Assembly: GCA_016870695.1 (NCBI GenBank)
Contig: VGAV01000014.1
Coordinates: 1 to 17,203, forward strand
Source of the DNA: Actinomycetota bacterium
GTDB lineage: Bacteria; Actinomycetota; Actinomycetes; Actinomycetales; Microbacteriaceae
Reading direction: 5' to 3'
DNA: 17,203 nt
Numbering within the stretch: the first letter of the stretch is position 1; each line of letters starts with the position of its first letter. This document shows, piece after piece, positions 1 to 4,490 of the stretch. A program made the position numbers and the translations under genes. The notes beneath the pieces were generated by a model. It searched no databases and was not told the origin of the DNA. It saw only the letters and a program-made list of their open reading frames with translations.

Positions 1-430
1 ATCCGCCCGCGCCGTCGGGGGCCGCGTCGGTGTCGCTGCCGAAGAGGACGAGGTCGTTCCCGGCCTCGCTGATCCCGAAGGCGAACACCTCGCCGCGAGC
101 GGCGCCCTCCTGCACGAAGGCGAGGTCGTCGATGCCGCGGTCCCGCAGCACCTTCGCCACGCCGGTCCACACGAGGTGCATGTTCACGGCGAGGGCGGTG
201 GCCGGCGCGGCCCCCGCCAGCCGCTGCTGCAGCTGCGCCGCCTCGGCGAGGGTCAGGCCGGCGCCGCCGCGGTCCGCGGGCACCAGGATGCCGAGGTATC
301 CCGCCGCCCGCAGGTCGTCGAGGTCGTCGGTGGGGAAGTTGTTCTCGCGGTCATGCACCGCGGCGCGCTCCCGGATGCGCGCGATGAGCTCGTCGGGCAG
401 GAACTGCGCGGGATCGAACGGAGCGGTCAT
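1..430 (-). CDS. Acyl-CoA dehydrogenase family protein, N-terminal part (runs off the left edge)
   Basis: The minus strand from ATG at 430 encodes 143 residues beginning MTAPFDPAQFLPDELIARI, still open at base 1. The N-terminal segment FPTDDLDDLRAAGYLGI followed by VPADRGGAGLTLAEA is the typical alpha-helical start of flavin-dependent acyl-CoA dehydrogenases. The later FGISEAGNDLVLFGSDT matches the region leading into the middle beta domain. The FAD-binding C-terminal half and the catalytic base lie outside the window, so substrate cannot be judged. Family members oxidise acyl-CoA thioesters and pass electrons to ETF; some relatives act as monooxygenases. No Shine-Dalgarno sequence is visible. 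A CAGAAT hexamer lies 7 bases upstream of the ATG, which suggests a leaderless transcript. An 18-base perfect palindrome sits just upstream. Confidence 0.88.
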   Translation of the reverse strand, partial: MTAPFDPAQFLPDELIARIRERAAVHDRENNFPTDDLDDLRAAGYLGILVPADRGGAGLTLAEAAQLQQRLAGAAPATALAVNMHLVWTGVAKVLRDRGIDDLAFVQEGAARGEVFAFGISEAGNDLVLFGSDTDAAPDGAGG

Positions 431-441
431 GGCATCCATTC

Positions 442-459
442 TGTCCGCGGCCGCGGACA
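442..459. promoter_or_regulatory. 18-bp perfect palindrome upstream of the acyl-CoA dehydrogenase gene
   Basis: TGTCCGCGG is followed directly by CCGCGGACA, a perfect inverted repeat with no spacer. Its near edge is 12 bases from the ATG at 430 and it overlaps the putative -10 (438-443). The position suits a repressor operator. No regulator can be assigned. GC-only palindromes arise easily in such DNA, but the A/T-containing ends make this one less trivial. Confidence 0.4.
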
Positions 460-507
460 TCGGGGCCGCGCGCTCCGGTGGGTCCGGAAGTGTCGGGACG
501 ACGGTGC

Positions 508-653
508 GGGCCGGGTCGGCCGGGGGAGGGATGCCGTGGAATCGGACGAGTGCGCCGGAATCGGAGCGTCTACCGTGTGGCATCCGATTCCGCGGCCCCG
601 GTCCGATTCCGCGATGCGCGTTCCGGGCCGGGTCGGCCGGGGGAGGGATGCCG
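508..653. repeat. 29-bp perfect direct repeat (508-536 and 625-653) flanking a palindromic element
   Basis: The 29 bases at 508-536 recur without a mismatch at 625-653. Each copy starts GGGCCGGGTCGG and ends GGGATGCCG. The copies bracket the four-word element at 538-610: the left copy ends one base before it and the right copy begins 14 bases after it. The region is intergenic, between the stop of the alpha/beta hydrolase at 666 and the start of the acyl-CoA dehydrogenase at 430. Confidence 0.85.
538..610. repeat. Four-word palindromic intergenic element 1 (word GGAATCGGA)
   Basis: GGAATCGGAC at 538-547 and GGAATCGGAG at 557-566 are in direct orientation, 19 bases apart. ATCCGATTCC at 582-591 and GTCCGATTCC at 601-610 are the inverted copies, also 19 bases apart. 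The outer pair 538-547/601-610 is a perfect inverted repeat, and the inner words match over 9 bases. The central gap is 15 bases. The same layout recurs at 1469-1535 and 3298-3375 with different words. Function is unknown: possibly a REP-like mobile palindrome, a protein-binding array or an RNA hairpin. Confidence 0.8.
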
Positions 654-665
654 GGACGGGCAGGG

Positions 666-1418
666 TCAGCGCAGGGCGTCGCGCAGCGCGGCGACGGTCT
701 CGTCCGGCTTGTCGCGGTGCGGCGAGTGGCCGGCGCCCGCGACGACCGACATCGAGACGAGAGGGTTCCGCAGCACCTCCTCGGCGAGGGCGCCGGTGAA
801 GATCGAATGCACCGCCGGGTCGGCGCCGATCACGTGCGTCGGCACGGTCAGCGCCGCGGCCGCCGCGCGCGCGTCCCACTCGGGGTTCTGGTCGGTGGTC
901 TGCTCCACCGCCCACCGGCTCGCCCGCAGCGTCGCGCGGGTCTTGAGCTCGATGTCGAGGGGATGCCAGTGCGGGTGGGCCGCGCGGACCGCCTCCTGCC
1001 GCGGGTCGTCGAACGCCTGCTCCAGTCCGACGCGGACGATGTCGCGGTCGCGCGCACCGATGTGAATCGCGGGGTCGACGAGGACGAGGCGTCGCGTCCA
1101 CGTGGGGTCCGCGGCGGCGGCCAGGGTCGCGGCCGCGCCGCCGAGCGAGTGCCCGAGGACCGCGTCCCAGCCCACCCCGCGGTCGGGCCGCGTGGCGGCG
1201 AGGTCGGCGCCATAGGCGGCGAGCGTGTAGTCGAGCGCCCGCGGCGCGTCGCCGTGCCCGCGCAGGTCGACGGCCACCGCGTGCCAGCCGGCGTCGGCCA
1301 GGGCGGTGCCGAAACGCCACATGAGGGCGCCGTCCGAGCCGAGGCCGTGAGCGAGGAGGATCTGCGGGCCGTCGGCGTCGCCCCAGCTGAGGCGGGGCAG
1401 GGTCACGGGAGCGGGCAT
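666..1418 (-). CDS. Alpha/beta-fold hydrolase
   Basis: A complete 250-residue protein, the usual length for a single-domain alpha/beta hydrolase. The oxyanion-hole motif HGLG is at residues 24-27, the nucleophile elbow GHSLGG at 89-94 (Ser91), a likely acid Asp200 in VIGADP, and the catalytic His231 in GAGHSPHRDKP. The strand DLRGHGDAP before the elbow is also typical. There is no signal peptide or membrane segment, so it should be cytosolic. Members include esterases, carboxylesterases and lactonases; the substrate cannot be read from sequence. The start is ATG at 1418, preceded by TAGCAT and a 6-base gap, which suggests leaderless transcription. The region between this gene and the divergent gene at 1593 contains a large hairpin element. 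Confidence 0.9.
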   Translation of the reverse strand: MPAPVTLPRLSWGDADGPQILLAHGLGSDGALMWRFGTALADAGWHAVAVDLRGHGDAPRALDYTLAAYGADLAATRPDRGVGWDAVLGHSLGGAAATLAAAADPTWTRRLVLVDPAIHIGARDRDIVRVGLEQAFDDPRQEAVRAAHPHWHPLDIELKTRATLRASRWAVEQTTDQNPEWDARAAAAALTVPTHVIGADPAVHSIFTGALAEEVLRNPLVSMSVVAGAGHSPHRDKPDETVAALRDALR

Positions 1419-1424
1419 CCCCTC

Positions 1425-1430
1425 ATGCTA
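1425..1430 (-). promoter_or_regulatory. Putative -10 hexamer TAGCAT of a leaderless promoter
   Basis: On the minus strand the order is TAGCAT, then gagggg, then ATG at 1418. A -10 exactly 6 bases from the start codon would place transcription initiation at the A of the ATG. No convincing -35 was seen. GAGGGG abuts the start codon, too close to act as a normal ribosome binding site. Confidence 0.55.
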
Positions 1431-1468
1431 GATCCGCCGCCGGGCGCCGCTGGTCCCCGCCGTCTCGC

Positions 1469-1535
1469 CGAGAAACGCGCGCTGCACCGAGGAACGCCGG
1501 GTGACGGCGTTTCTCGGTGCAGACCGCGTTCCTCG
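1469..1535. repeat. Four-word palindromic intergenic element 2 (word CGAGRAACGC), 31-bp hairpin
   Basis: Four copies of CGAGRAACGC start at 1469, 1488, 1507 and 1526, exactly 19 bases apart; the first two are direct and the last two inverted. Together they form one long hairpin: the arms 1469-1499 and 1505-1535 pair over 31 positions with three mismatches and one G-T wobble, around the 5-base loop GGTGA. It lies between two divergent genes (starts at 1418 and 1593), so it is not an ordinary terminator for either. It shares its layout with the elements at 538-610 and 3298-3375. Confidence 0.85.
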
Positions 1536-1592
1536 AACGAGGGGGCGCCCCGCGGCGGCCCGCTGCCGACGAACCGCCGCGAGAATGGCTGC

Positions 1593-1997
1593 ATGATCTC
1601 GACCGAGATGGCCCTGGCCCTGCGCGCGGCCGGACTGGTGTGGCATCCACGCTCCGGCGACCGGTTCCAGCTCGACGAGCCCGAGTTCGACGCCGACGTC
1701 TTCACCGTCAGCGAGATGACCGTCGAGCCGCGCGACTACCCGACGGGCCGCATCCTCGCGTTCAACGGGACGACCGAGTGGGCGCTGGACTCCGTCGCGA
1801 CCGAGGACGCGCTGTGGCTGCCGTCCGAGGCGCAGCTCCGCGAGCTGCTGCGCACGTCGTTCCGTGCGCTGCGCCGCCTCGCCGACACGCACGAGGTCGA
1901 GATCGCCCTCGGGGGAGCGACCCTCGTGTTCGAGCACCCGGAGCCCGCGGACGCCTACGCCCTGGCCGTGCTCGAGCTGCTCCGACGCATCCAGTGA
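1593..1997 (+). CDS. Conserved actinobacterial hypothetical protein, 134 aa
   Basis: The ATG at 1593 opens a 134-residue soluble protein, MISTEMALALRAAGLVWHP..., with no signal peptide, membrane segment or recognised catalytic motif. It is mildly acidic, with central segments FTVSEMTVEPRDYPTGRI and FNGTTEWALDSVATEDALWL and a C-terminal segment ending AYALAVLELLRRIQ. From memory, close relatives are common in Microbacteriaceae and are sometimes auto-named pilus assembly protein CpaE. It has no P-loop, so that name is not supported here. No Shine-Dalgarno is visible; GAGAAT lies exactly 6 bases upstream of the ATG, which may be a leaderless -10. It converges on the MFS gene, leaving a 45-base gap. 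Function unknown. Confidence 0.8.
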   Translation: MISTEMALALRAAGLVWHPRSGDRFQLDEPEFDADVFTVSEMTVEPRDYPTGRILAFNGTTEWALDSVATEDALWLPSEAQLRELLRTSFRALRRLADTHEVEIALGGATLVFEHPEPADAYALAVLELLRRIQ

Positions 1998-2042
1998 TTG
2001 GATGCCGCCCGGCGGCGGTCCCGCCTCGCGGTCGCTGCCGCG

Positions 2043-3248
2043 TCAGGTGATGGTGTGCACCGGCTCCGTGTCCGGGATGGGGCTGGCGTCGCGGTGGCGG
2101 AGGTCGGGGAACCCGCGGACGAAGACGGCCGACACGACCAGTCCGGCCGCGGCGAACGCGGCCCCGGCGATGTAGGCGCCCTGCGGGCCGATGCCGTCGA
2201 TGAGCAGGCCCGCGATGGCCGAGCCGGCGGCCGCGCCGATCAGCTGGCCGGTGCCGATCCAGCCGTAGGCCTCGGCCGTCTCGCTGAAGCGGACGCTCGC
2301 GGAGGTCATCGCGAACATCACCGCGAGCGCGGGGGCGATGCCGGCGCCCGCGACGAGGAGGGTCGCGCCGAGCCACCAGGCGTTCAGCGACACGATCGTC
2401 AGGGACAGGCCGAGGGCGACGATCGCGAACCGGCGGGCCATCGCCCACGGACCGATCGGGATGTGGCCGAAGGACAGGCCGCCGGCGAGGCTGCCGACCG
2501 CGAACACCGCGAGGATGAGGCCCGCCTCCAGGCCGCCGTGGTCGAACGTCGCGACGACGCCGGCCTCGACCGCCGCGCACGCGCCGATGAGGAGGAAGCC
2601 GGTCGCGGTGGCCAGGACGACGGGCGGCTTGGCCAGCACGGTGCCGAGCGCACGACGGCTGCGGGGGATGCGGACGCGGCCGACCTCGGGGCTGAGGATG
2701 AACCACGCGCCGCCGCCGAGGAGGATCGCCACGACCAGCAGCAGTCCGGGGACGGTGCCCACCTGCGTGGCCACGAGGGTGATGAGCACCGGGGCGAGGA
2801 CCCAGATGATCTCCTGCAGGGAGGCGTCCAGGGAGTAGAGGGGGGTGAGCTGCTTCGAGTTGACCATCTTGGGGTAGATGGTGCGGACCGCGGACTGGAT
2901 CGGCGGCGTCGACAGCCCGGCCAACAGCCCGAGCGCCATGTAGAGGGGGAGGGCCATCTCGATGAGGGCGAGCGTCGCGATCGCGGCGGCGCACACGAGC
3001 AGCGTCGTGGTGAGCACGCGCCGCATGCCCCACACGCCCATCCAGCGGCTGGTGACGGGACCCGCGATGGCCTGCCCGATGCTCGTCGCCGCGAGGACCA
3101 GGCCAGCCGCGCCGTAGGAGCCGGTGACGTGCTCGATGTGCAGCAGCACCGCGAGGCTCGTCATGCCGTTGGGGAACCGCGCCGTCAACTGCGCGGCGAT
3201 GATGCGCCCCACCCCGGGGGTGCGGAGGAGTTCGCGGTAGCCGGCCAC
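2043..3248 (-). CDS. MFS transporter
   Basis: A 401-residue hydrophobic protein with about 12 membrane segments, matching major facilitator length. The cytoplasmic loop between helices 2 and 3, near residues 63-79 ([17 protein letters not shown]), matches the MFS signature region. The second half repeats the pattern ([35 protein letters not shown]). The likely role is proton-coupled efflux of a small molecule; the substrate is not deducible. The frame stays open upstream to 3620, but membrane-protein sequence begins only at the GTG at 3248 (GTG-GCC-GGC-TAC). That GTG is preceded by TACCGT and a 6-base gap, which supports a leaderless start. The longer upstream reading passes through the palindromic element and tandem repeats and is rejected. 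The C-terminus is a short hydrophilic tail ending PVHTIT. Confidence 0.85.
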
Positions 3249-3254
3249 CTGGCA

Positions 3255-3260
3255 ACGGTA
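3255..3260 (-). promoter_or_regulatory. Putative -10 hexamer TACCGT of a leaderless MFS promoter
   Basis: The minus strand reads TACCGT, tgccag, then GTG at 3248. The 6-base gap equals that before three other genes in the window, and no ribosome binding site is present. This is the main reason for choosing the GTG at 3248. Confidence 0.5.
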
Positions 3261-3297
3261 CAGCCCGCCGCCGACACGCGTGGGTGGGTCCGGGTGT

Positions 3298-3375
3298 CGA
3301 GATCCCGCGATCCCGCCGAGATCACACGCTCCGGTCGACCGGAGCGCGCGATCTCGCGCCGAACGTGCGATCTCG
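3298..3375. repeat. Four-word palindromic intergenic element 3 (word CGAGATC)
   Basis: CGAGATCCCG at 3298-3307 and CGAGATCACA at 3317-3326 are direct, 19 bases apart. CGCGATCTCG at 3347-3356 and TGCGATCTCG at 3366-3375 are inverted, 19 bases apart. The 20 bases between the inner words (3327-3346) are themselves a perfect palindrome, CGCTCCGGTCGACCGGAGCG. This is the same word-spacer-word geometry as elements 1 and 2. Function unknown. Confidence 0.82.
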
Positions 3376-3377
3376 GC

Positions 3378-3430
3378 GACGCGCCGACGGCCGACGCGCC
3401 GACGGCCGACGCGCCGACGCGCCGACGGCC
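3378..3430. repeat. 15-bp tandem repeat, unit GACGCGCCGACGGCC
   Basis: Two perfect 15-base units (3378-3392, 3393-3407) are followed by a third interrupted by an extra GACGCGCC-type segment, ending near 3430. It adjoins element 3. It is a low-complexity minisatellite-like tract, and no protein reading across it looks real. Confidence 0.75.
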
Positions 3431-3462
3431 GTCGCGACACGCCGACGACACGCCGGCGCGCC

Positions 3463-3606
3463 GTTTCCACACCCTGTGCGATGTCGGAGCCCCCTCGTAC
3501 CGTGCGACCTGTGGACGGAGGCGCCACCAGGGGTCGGGAACCGCGGAAACGCGGGCCTTCCGACGGCCGGGAAGGGAGGTCGAGCTGTGGATGAAATCGT
3601 GGACAA
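3463..3606. promoter_or_regulatory. Scattered DnaA-box-like sequences upstream of nrdHIEF
   Basis: Four near matches to the DnaA 9-mer are visible: GTTTCCACA at 3463-3471 (minus orientation), TGTGGACGG at 3510-3518, TGTGGATGA at 3586-3594 and CGTGGACAA at 3598-3606. Each differs from TGTGGATAA or TGTGGACAA by one or two bases. DnaA is known to control ribonucleotide reductase genes in E. coli and B. subtilis, so a regulatory role is plausible. There is no AT-rich unwinding region or dnaA/dnaN neighbour, so this is not an origin. Confidence 0.3.
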
Positions 3607-3638
3607 CCTGTGTTGTACATGGGGATGGTCGCGCGAAA

Positions 3639-3701
3639 ACCACACTCGTGTAACTACTACCCCTTGTGGTGCCATCGGATGTCCGCACCCATATGTAGTA
3701 T
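3639..3701 (+). promoter_or_regulatory. Candidate nrdHIEF promoter with possible NrdR-box pair
   Basis: This AT-richer stretch contains an imperfect palindrome centred at 3661.5 (ACTAC at 3653-3657, GTGGT at 3666-3670) and a second site centred on CATATG at 3690-3695 (ACCCATATGTAGT). The centres are 31 bases apart, three helical turns, the spacing usual for paired NrdR boxes. The match to the NrdR consensus is imperfect in both. TAGTAT at 3696-3701 could be the -10. NrdR is the usual repressor of nrd operons in actinobacteria; its gene is not in the window. Confidence 0.4.
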
Positions 3702-3761
3702 TGAGGTCCCGGCGGGCCGAGCCCACCGGACGACAGGATTCCCAGGGGAGAGAGAACCGAA

Positions 3762-3995
3762 ATGGCGATCACGGTCTACACCAAGCCCTCGTGCGTGCAG
3801 TGCACGGCGACGTACCGCGCACTGGACTCGAAGGGCATCGAGTACGAGGTCCTCGACCTCTCCGAGGACCCCGCTGCGCTCGAGCAGGTCAAGTCCCTCG
3901 GCTACCTGCAGGCCCCCGTCGTCATCACCGACGAGGACCACTGGTCGGGCTTCCGTCCCGACAAGATCGACGAGCTGGCCTCGCGTCTGGCCTGA
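3762..3995 (+). CDS. nrdH: Glutaredoxin-like protein NrdH
   Basis: A 77-residue small redox protein, the expected NrdH length, beginning [21 protein letters not shown]. The redox motif C-V-Q-C is at residues 11-14, and the C-terminal [13 protein letters not shown] matches the NrdH signature. NrdH reduces the NrdE active-site disulfide and is itself reduced by thioredoxin reductase. The start is ATG at 3762 with AGGGGAG about 11 bases upstream and a nearer GAGAG. It is the first gene of nrdHIEF; nrdI follows after 27 bases. Confidence 0.96.
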
Positions 3996-4022
3996 CTCCC
4001 GGACGGCTCGGAGGGCGTCCCC

Positions 4023-4490
4023 GTGAGCATCGATCTCCAGAACGCCCCCGGCGGCGTCGCGATGTCCGACACCACGTCTCCGCTCCTCGTCTTCTTCTCG
4101 AGCGTGTCCGGCAACACGGCGCGTTTCATCGAGAAGCTGGGGAAGCGGGCGGTGCGCATCCCGCTCCTGCCCTCCGAGCCCGCCCTGGTCGTCGACGAGC
4201 CCTTCGTCCTCGTCACTCCGACGTACGGAGGGGGAGAGGGGCGCGGCGTCGAGAAGGGCGCGGTGCCCAAGCAGGTCATCCGCTTCCTCAACGAGGAGCG
4301 GAACCGACGCAACATCCGCGGGGTCATCTCCGCGGGCAACACGAACTTCGGCGATTCCTTCTGTCTCGCCGGCGACATCATCAGCCGCAAGTGCTCCGTG
4401 CCGCACTTGTACCGGCTGGAAGTTTTCGGCACGCCAGACGACGTCGAGCGCGTCACCGAGGGATTGGAACGATGGTGGAAGTTGAGCTGA
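4023..4490 (+). CDS. nrdI: Class Ib RNR flavodoxin-like activator NrdI
   Basis: A 155-residue protein with the flavodoxin-like FMN-binding loop SSVSGNT at residues 26-32, the TPTYGGGEG segment near 65-73 and [11 protein letters not shown] near 103-113, all characteristic of NrdI. It binds FMN and supplies the oxidant that assembles the dimanganese-tyrosyl radical cofactor of NrdF. The GTG at 4023 is preferred because GGAGGG lies 7 bases upstream. The ATG at 4062 (residue 14, [12 protein letters not shown]) is closer to the family core but has only a weak ribosome binding site. Its 3' end overlaps nrdE by 19 bases, implying translational coupling. Confidence 0.94.

What the first reader, a model, noticed from the sequence alone, without database searches (positions are those of the whole stretch)
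538..3375. Three intergenic elements share one geometry (10-base word, 9-base spacer, 10-base word, then inverted copy) but use different words
Elements at 538-610, 1469-1535 and 3298-3375 each contain four copies of a roughly 10-base word, two direct then two inverted. The within-pair offset is exactly 19 bases in all six pairs. Words are GGAATCGGA, CGAGRAACGC and CGAGATC; central gaps are 15, 9 and 20 bases. Conserved spacing with changing sequence suggests selection on structure or on a protein that reads paired sites 19 bases apart. Alternatively, this is a REP-like mobile palindrome family that maintains self-complementarity while diverging. None sits where a simple terminator is needed.
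Basis: partly seen in the sequence, partly recalled or inferred. Interest (0 to 1): 0.75.

Follow-up and report, generated by a model that had tools for sequence, protein, structure and literature searches.

The report
Word-swapping fourfold palindromes in Microbacterium
Microbacterium genomes carry several families of short DNA elements between genes; each repeats a 10-letter word twice, 19 letters apart, and then twice again in reverse, and the word differs from family to family while the spacing stays fixed, as if related but unidentified proteins read them.

Summary
All six within-pair offsets are 19; only one central gap was misread (17, not 15). Each element belongs to its own dispersed family in this genome (11 copies of each aligned). 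In a free-word scan of 604,603 bp of this genome, offset 19 gives 12 strong hits, each of 16 other offsets 0-2, a shuffle 0. The families occur in 47, 75 and 51 of 198 genomes of the genus; further words share the offset. One family uses 18.

Elements lie mostly behind genes (86 convergent, 80 co-directional, 13 divergent gaps of 201); the window's two divergent sites are atypical. T-tracts and target-site duplications are lacking, and the relatives' orthologous gaps examined hold none of the three. The CGAGRAACGC family keeps spacers complementary; the GGAATCGGA family keeps little but its words, which speaks against one shared RNA fold.

Best reading: REPIN-like dispersed DNA elements whose words are read pairwise by family-specific proteins. 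They fail two REP tests: the RAYT transposase domain is in 1 of 198 genomes, and there is no GTAG tag. The protein is unknown; whether the elements are selfish or host-functional is open.

The parts
537..611 (.). Element E1, family A (word CRGAWTCGGA); word starts 19-27-19 apart with 10-base words; between an acyl-CoA dehydrogenase-like gene and an alpha/beta hydrolase gene (co-directional)
537..546 (+). E1 word 1 TGGAATCGGA
556..565 (+). E1 word 2 CGGAATCGGA
583..592 (-). E1 word 3 (inverted)
602..611 (-). E1 word 4 (inverted)
1469..1535 (.). Element E2, family B (word CGAKRAACGC), 67 nt, word starts 19-19-19 apart, hairpin-forming; in the divergent gap between the hydrolase gene and ORF 1593-1997
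1469..1478 (+). E2 word 1 CGAGAAACGC
1488..1497 (+). E2 word 2 CGAGGAACGC
1507..1516 (-). E2 word 3 (inverted)
1526..1535 (-). E2 word 4 (inverted)
3298..3375 (.). Element E3, family C (word CGAGATCRCACG), 78 nt; in the divergent gap between an MFS gene and nrdH
3298..3307 (+). E3 word 1 CGAGATCCCG
3317..3326 (+). E3 word 2 CGAGATCACA
3347..3356 (-). E3 word 3 (inverted)
3366..3375 (-). E3 word 4 (inverted)

Best explanation
The three elements are members of three families within one class of dispersed intergenic palindromes of Microbacterium. The unit is four copies of a family-specific word of about 10 bp, arranged forward-forward-reverse-reverse, with a 19-bp step inside each pair and a family-specific centre. 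Shown: the families, the rigid step, presence/absence differences between species, the location mostly behind genes, and the constraint on words (plus complementarity in family B). Inferred: each family is read on DNA by its own member of a fast-diversifying protein family that binds two tandem words per arm. The elements spread REPIN-like as non-autonomous palindromes (in family B perhaps through a folded single-strand or cruciform state) and persist in tolerant space behind genes and their terminators. The trans-acting protein has not been identified.
For: Own-genome families: with 11 copies of each aligned. Offset 19 is singled out in own and related sequence (on stretches chosen around B hits). 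Patchy distribution: 75, 47 and 51 of 198 genus genomes (own included) for B, A and C; union 110. None of the three elements in the orthologous gaps seen: 15 loci for E2, 17 for E3, 19 for E1. Other presence/absence cases: the four-element array of L210 against a 38-nt gap in G069 and an 11-nt gap in G027; three elements against one diverged element at the L245 locus in G016. Family B copies resemble each other more within a genome than between genomes in word, spacer and loop (0 of 1000 label permutations as high, near-identical copies left out), which points to within-genome copying. Family B spacer pairing 0.708 within a copy against 0.446 between copies; slides by 1-3 columns show no such excess. 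Family A spacers 0.498 against 0.443, words strongly conserved. In same-locus pairs of different species (154 pairs found; same-family pairs with identity >=0.6 counted) mismatch is 258/1980 (A) and 381/2560 (B) in words, but 0.42-0.58 in spacers and loops. Gaps: 86 convergent, 80 co-directional, 13 divergent of 201 catalogued (6 overlap a called gene, 16 lack a called neighbour), against 75, 225 and 121 of 421 background gaps.
Against: No candidate protein was found: no recurrent transposase or regulator adjoins the elements in the clusters seen; recurrent neighbours look like core genes (named by eye). No target-site duplication. Same-locus persistence across species is longer than a purely selfish element would suggest, though the word/spacer contrast is biased because elements were found by their words, and pairs share loci. 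Family A copies show no within-genome similarity in their loops (809 of 1000 permutations as high) and only a small one in spacers (0.488 against 0.432, 0 of 1000), so recent copying is not shown for A. One family steps by 18. Random stretches of two of three other Microbacterium genomes held no offset-19 element.
Confidence: 0.45

Rival explanations
1. Host-functional DNA sites: an insulator, transcription roadblock or nucleoid-bridging array behind genes, bound by host proteins, with words kept by selection for that function and no element mobility.
For: Convergent-gap enrichment and divergent depletion; words conserved in same-locus pairs; family A constrained in little but its words.
Against: Patchy presence (110 of 198 genomes for the three families together), absence at the orthologous gaps seen, within-genome similarity of family B spacers and loops, and several unrelated words in one genome.
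Confidence: 0.25
2. RNA hairpins: 3' UTR stabilisers or terminators, kept by base pairing in the transcript.
For: Strong predicted hairpins for all three elements; family B spacer covariation in 101 elements; location 3' of genes; G.U above A.C in oriented B elements (56 against 42), a weak lean.
Against: Family A spacers show little covariation and its oriented mismatches are 15 G.U to 17 A.C (26 elements); T>=4 in 8 nt on only 5 of 400 element sides, and a separate stem of >=10 bp lies between stop codon and element on 30 of 125 sides against 2 of 126 shuffled. Pairing does not explain why words 1 and 2 are alike.
Confidence: 0.13
3. True REP/REPIN elements moved by RAYT (Y1) transposases, with the enzyme lost or supplied from elsewhere.
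For: Inverted doublets, compensatory change, tandem clusters including flanks and an extragenic location all match published REPINs (PMC3116915, passages).
Against: PF01797 in 1 of 198 genus genomes, none found in the own genome, controls ring in 5 of 14; GTAG in 1 of 202 (B) and 0 of 134 (A) flanks, controls 4 of 199 and 1 of 133; CGTC 15 of 202 (control 21 of 199) for B and 18 of 134 (12 of 133) for A.
Confidence: 0.05
4. Remnants of DDE-type transposons reduced to two ends, each end with two tandem transposase sites (MITE-like).
For: Two tandem sites per inverted arm is an anatomy recalled for several transposase families (no call); near-constant unit length within families.
Against: No target-site duplication in 99 B and 67 A elements over 648 tested combinations each (top z 3.0); 67-79 bp is short for such an element. 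A full-length relative with a gene between the arms was not searched for.
Confidence: 0.09
5. Coincidence of GC-rich intergenic sequence.
For: Offsets that are multiples of 3 have a raised low-score background; random stretches show single hits at several offsets.
Against:: the strong excess is confined to offset 19 and absent in the shuffle.
Confidence: 0.01

Closest known systems
REPINs (REP doublets forming hairpins, Pseudomonas; PMC3116915, passages read)
   Same: Extragenic inverted pairs of conserved words around variable spacers, compensatory changes, tandem clusters that include flanks, several word groups, evidence of within-genome copying (family B).
   Different: Each arm holds two direct words 19 bp apart; Y1 transposase domain not found in 197 of 198 genus genomes; no GTAG enrichment; 11 to 16 copies per family seen in this genome.
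GTAG- and CGTC-tagged REP superfamilies (PMC3733652; start of abstract in a listing and a term search of the text)
   Same: Short extragenic palindromes in families.
   Different: No tag enrichment here; the terms Microbacterium, Actinobacteria, Clavibacter, Leifsonia and Micrococcales were not found in that text.
TnpAREP-REP pairs (PMC8266576, passages)
   Same: A protein family that recognises palindromic REP words folded as single strands.
   Different: That recognition uses GTAG, bulge and loop features of REP; the enzyme domain was not found here.
Operators with tandem direct repeats plus dyad symmetry (recalled, no call)
   Same: A fixed step between words and words conserved over spacers, as in family A.
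   Different: Dozens of copies behind diverse genes, several unrelated words with one step.

Membership tests
REP/REPIN (RAYT-associated) | Y1 (RAYT) transposase encoded in the same or related genomes | tested here: not met
   0 found in own genome (88% complete); 1 of 198 genus genomes; 5 of 14 control genomes ring
REP/REPIN (RAYT-associated) | GTAG or CGTC tetranucleotide at the palindrome | tested here: not met
   12-nt flanks: B GTAG 1 of 202 (control 4 of 199), CGTC 15 (21); A GTAG 0 of 134 (1 of 133), CGTC 18 (12)
REP/REPIN (RAYT-associated) | inverted word doublet in extragenic space with compensatory changes | tested here: met
   family B spacer pairing 0.708 against 0.446; 179 of 201 catalogued elements intergenic with both neighbours. 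Hardly met by family A spacers (0.498 against 0.443); not tested for C
Intrinsic terminator | T-tract directly after the hairpin | tested here: not met
   T>=4 in 8 nt on 5 of 400 element sides
DDE-transposon MITE | target-site duplication | tested here: not met
   no combination stands out among 648 for B or for A; C not tested
Curated RNA family | Rfam match at gathering score | tested here: not met
   window 1-4200, 5 matches, all below gathering
Protein-bound word array | specific binding of the words by a protein | not testable with these tools
   needs DNA-affinity purification or ChIP

The most novel reading that the evidence does not exclude
A superfamily of bacterial dispersed elements, defined by a 19-bp step rather than by sequence, is governed by a still unknown family of quickly diversifying DNA-binding or DNA-moving proteins unrelated to RAYTs. 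Several word families coexist in one genome, and the word found at one locus may follow the genome's current word: the gap behind the same gene holds CGATAAACGC elements in G020 and GCATAAACGC elements in G027 (G027's few other B elements seen are mixed).
Probability: 0.35. Interest if true: 0.78.

Novelty: new variant of a known kind. Interest (0 to 1): 0.62.

Why it matters
Dispersed palindromes of this REPIN-like kind are generally tied to RAYT transposases. Here is an abundant set in a genus where the RAYT domain was found in 1 of 198 genomes, keeping one spacing through complete changes of word, and in one family keeping little but the words. The constant 19-bp step and the word changes give a direct handle for finding the protein: bait DNA with wild-type words and with a changed step. 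If a new mobilising or DNA-organising protein family exists, these elements are its footprint.

Tried and rejected
Rfam, phages (window 1-3760 searched, only a match at 12-412, in a gene), viral contigs with exact word patterns for B and A (none), plasmids with E2 and E3 (none; E1 not searched). RAYT/IS200 rejected. Target-site duplications, terminator T-tracts and GTAG/CGTC tags rejected. A search for a shared neighbour gene gave only core-like genes in the clusters seen. The G.U versus A.C test was inconclusive. Outside the genus: model R1 hits 8 of 299 family-level genomes, 6 of them outside the genus; 5 of the 8 hit loci from outside the genus show offset 19 with other words, but random stretches of six other genera (560 kb) gave no offset-19 hit >=29, and five single hits at other offsets (14, 15 twice, 18, 21). 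Random stretches of other Microbacterium gave at offset 19: G069 2 in 100 kb, G007 0 in 100 kb, G034 0 in 40 kb, with one hit at 15 and one at 18. The first gene caller mis-called strands and was replaced.

Rows dropped: the catalogue (211 elements, score >=26) removed near-identical copies and may hold a few false members; 42 fitted neither the A nor the B register and are not in the A/B statistics; 4 A elements with a 27-nt centre were left out of column statistics; loci L204-L209 were not assigned to genomes, and genomes with fewer than 3 copies not used; pairs below 0.6 identity or of unequal family were not counted; 9 of 44 own elements had no usable orientation. Per-genome counts are capped (24-26 candidates scored), so copy numbers are lower bounds. 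The lists of handles were typed into the script. The outputs were cut in view; their totals come from lines shown.
Full report
What was checked. The window is contig C14 of G000, a 3.19-Mb, 654-contig assembly, 88% complete. The three elements are as described: four words, two forward then two reversed, the step inside each pair being 19 in all six pairs. The centre of E1 is 17, not 15. Their neighbours are an acyl-CoA dehydrogenase-like gene, an alpha/beta hydrolase, an ORF with no Pfam match, an MFS transporter, nrdH (glutaredoxin family) and nrdI.

Is it more than chance? With the word left free, I scored four 10-base words in this arrangement for steps 12-28 and centres 3-30. In 604,603 bp of the own genome, step 19 gives 12 hits at score >=30 and 10 at >=33; the other steps give 0-2 and 0. 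In 352,132 bp around orthologous loci of 20 relatives step 19 gives 5, the others 0; one shuffle of each set gives 0. In 400 kb chosen around family B hits it is 28 against at most 1 (this set is biased towards elements). In randomly placed stretches the excess is not visible by itself: 2 hits at step 19 in 240 kb of three other Microbacterium genomes, both in G069, with one hit each at steps 15 and 18. Word pairs sought with fixed words recur at direct step 19 and, head to head, mainly at the offsets of the full unit, so the unit is the quartet.

Families. Each window element finds its own family in the own genome. Alignments of 11 copies each show near-constant length as trimmed: 67-68 nt for B (E2), 77-79 for A (E1), 78-79 for C (E3). 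Models of the three families hit 75, 47 and 51 of 198 genus genomes (own included), 110 in union; they co-occur more than expected (Fisher p 0.0009, 0.004, 0.013, not corrected for relatedness). Further words with step 19 appear in relatives, such as TTCGGGGCGG, AAACACCCC, CGAACCCAC, CGAGAAACC and CTCGCAGAAT, and a few in other genera (CGAGAATCGC, GAGAACCGCC). One family, CGAGAACAGG, steps by 18 (two members seen).

Anatomy and constraint. In 101 B elements the two halves are complementary beyond the words: spacer columns pair in 0.708 of cells within a copy against 0.446 between copies, and slides by 1-3 columns show no such excess; pairing fades to background within a few bases outside the element. 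In 64 A elements (centre 26) the words are strongly conserved, but spacers pair 0.498 against 0.443 and the loop 0.391 against 0.365. So folding is maintained in B and hardly in A, while the 19 step is common to both. A hairpin alone would not need word 1 to resemble word 2. This points to recognition of words at the DNA level, with folding an added feature of B. C was not tested in this way. An arm can expand in 19-nt tandem units (copy L052, L226).

Place and history. Of 201 catalogued elements with score >=28, 86 lie in convergent gaps, 80 co-directional, 13 divergent, 6 overlap a called gene and 16 lack a called neighbour; background gaps of at least 100 bp: 75, 225, 121 (chi-square p 5e-16; elements in related genomes are not independent). 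For the own genome alone, 35 of 44 elements could be classed: 12 convergent, 19 co-directional, 4 divergent, p 0.017. In co-directional gaps the upstream gene's 3' end is nearer in 55 of 80. E2 and E3 are among the rare divergent cases. At the orthologous gaps of relatives none of the three elements was seen, by reading and by the scan: the E2 gap is 65-93 nt in 14 of 15 loci and 332 in one, against 174 here; the E3 gap is 359-396 in 17 loci against 507; the E1 gap is 8-290 in 19 loci against 235 (gaps run between protein-match ends, so some include gene ends). Two E1 gaps (L159 by scan, L155 by reading) hold an element-like repeat of another word. Two better-resolved cases: the four-element array in G020 (L210) is a 38-nt gap in G069 and an 11-nt gap in G027, and a terminator-like hairpin follows the gene in the G020, G069, G027, G052 and G054 sequences read; the three-element gap in L245 holds one diverged element in G016 (96% identical flank on one side, 68% on the other) and elements with the word GCATAAACGC in G027. 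Same-locus pairs exist too, with words conserved and spacers changed (words were the detection criterion, so this is suggestive, not a clean selection test). Within-genome similarity of B words, spacers and loops exceeds between-genome similarity, which supports copying within genomes; for A this holds weakly for words and spacers and not for the loop.

What it is not. Not RAYT-type REPs; not intrinsic terminators; no target-site duplication in A or B; no Rfam family; not seen in viral contigs by exact A and B patterns, nor in plasmids by similarity of E2 and E3. No recurrent transposase or regulator was seen beside them.

Verdict. A real, spacing-defined class of dispersed palindromes that works most like REPINs but fails two of their defining tests. 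Its reader is unknown. Literature: six searches (listings) and term searches in two papers showed no description of such elements in Microbacterium; the library holds open-licence papers only.

Noticed in passing
window 502-536 and 619-653: A 35-nt direct repeat (94% identical) flanks E1 on both sides, start-to-start 117 nt; a local duplication around the element or part of its arrival.
   Followed up: no
window 3374-3463: GC-rich imperfect tandem repeat (GACGCGCCGACGGCC-like units) directly behind E3; relatives' gaps show only a short CGACACGCCGCGACACGCC stretch there, so it looks expanded here.
   Followed up: no
window about 3480-3760: The nrdH upstream region is strongly conserved in 17 relatives' loci, including CTGTGGATGAA..GTGGA..AACCTGTGTTGT and ATATGTAGTATTG; it looks like NrdR boxes (recalled, not tested).
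   Followed up: no
L096 7006-7080; L384 13166: A related family with word CGAGAACAGG and step 18 instead of 19, in the own genome and in G007.
   Followed up: partly
L210 8083-8618: Four B elements in tandem at about 150-160-nt spacing with their flanks.
   Followed up: partly
L397 and L398, gap behind the orthologue of the L210 gene: G054 and, in part, G052 hold another inverted word, GCACAACTCCTGC / GCAGGAGTTGTGC, in the gap where G020 has the B array.
   Followed up: no
L301 1330-1950: A and CTCGCAGAAT-word elements alternate in a unit repeated at about 267 nt.
   Followed up: no
L074, L079, L083, L084 (family C): In some C copies the spacer is itself close to the inverted word, giving CGAGATCACGTGATCTCG (exact in L084), an 18-bp palindrome, followed by the next word.
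   Followed up: no
window 12-412: 68.9% match to an unannotated 'Bacteriophage sp.' record MT835570 in an acyl-CoA dehydrogenase-like gene; possibly bacterial sequence in a phage record.
   Followed up: no
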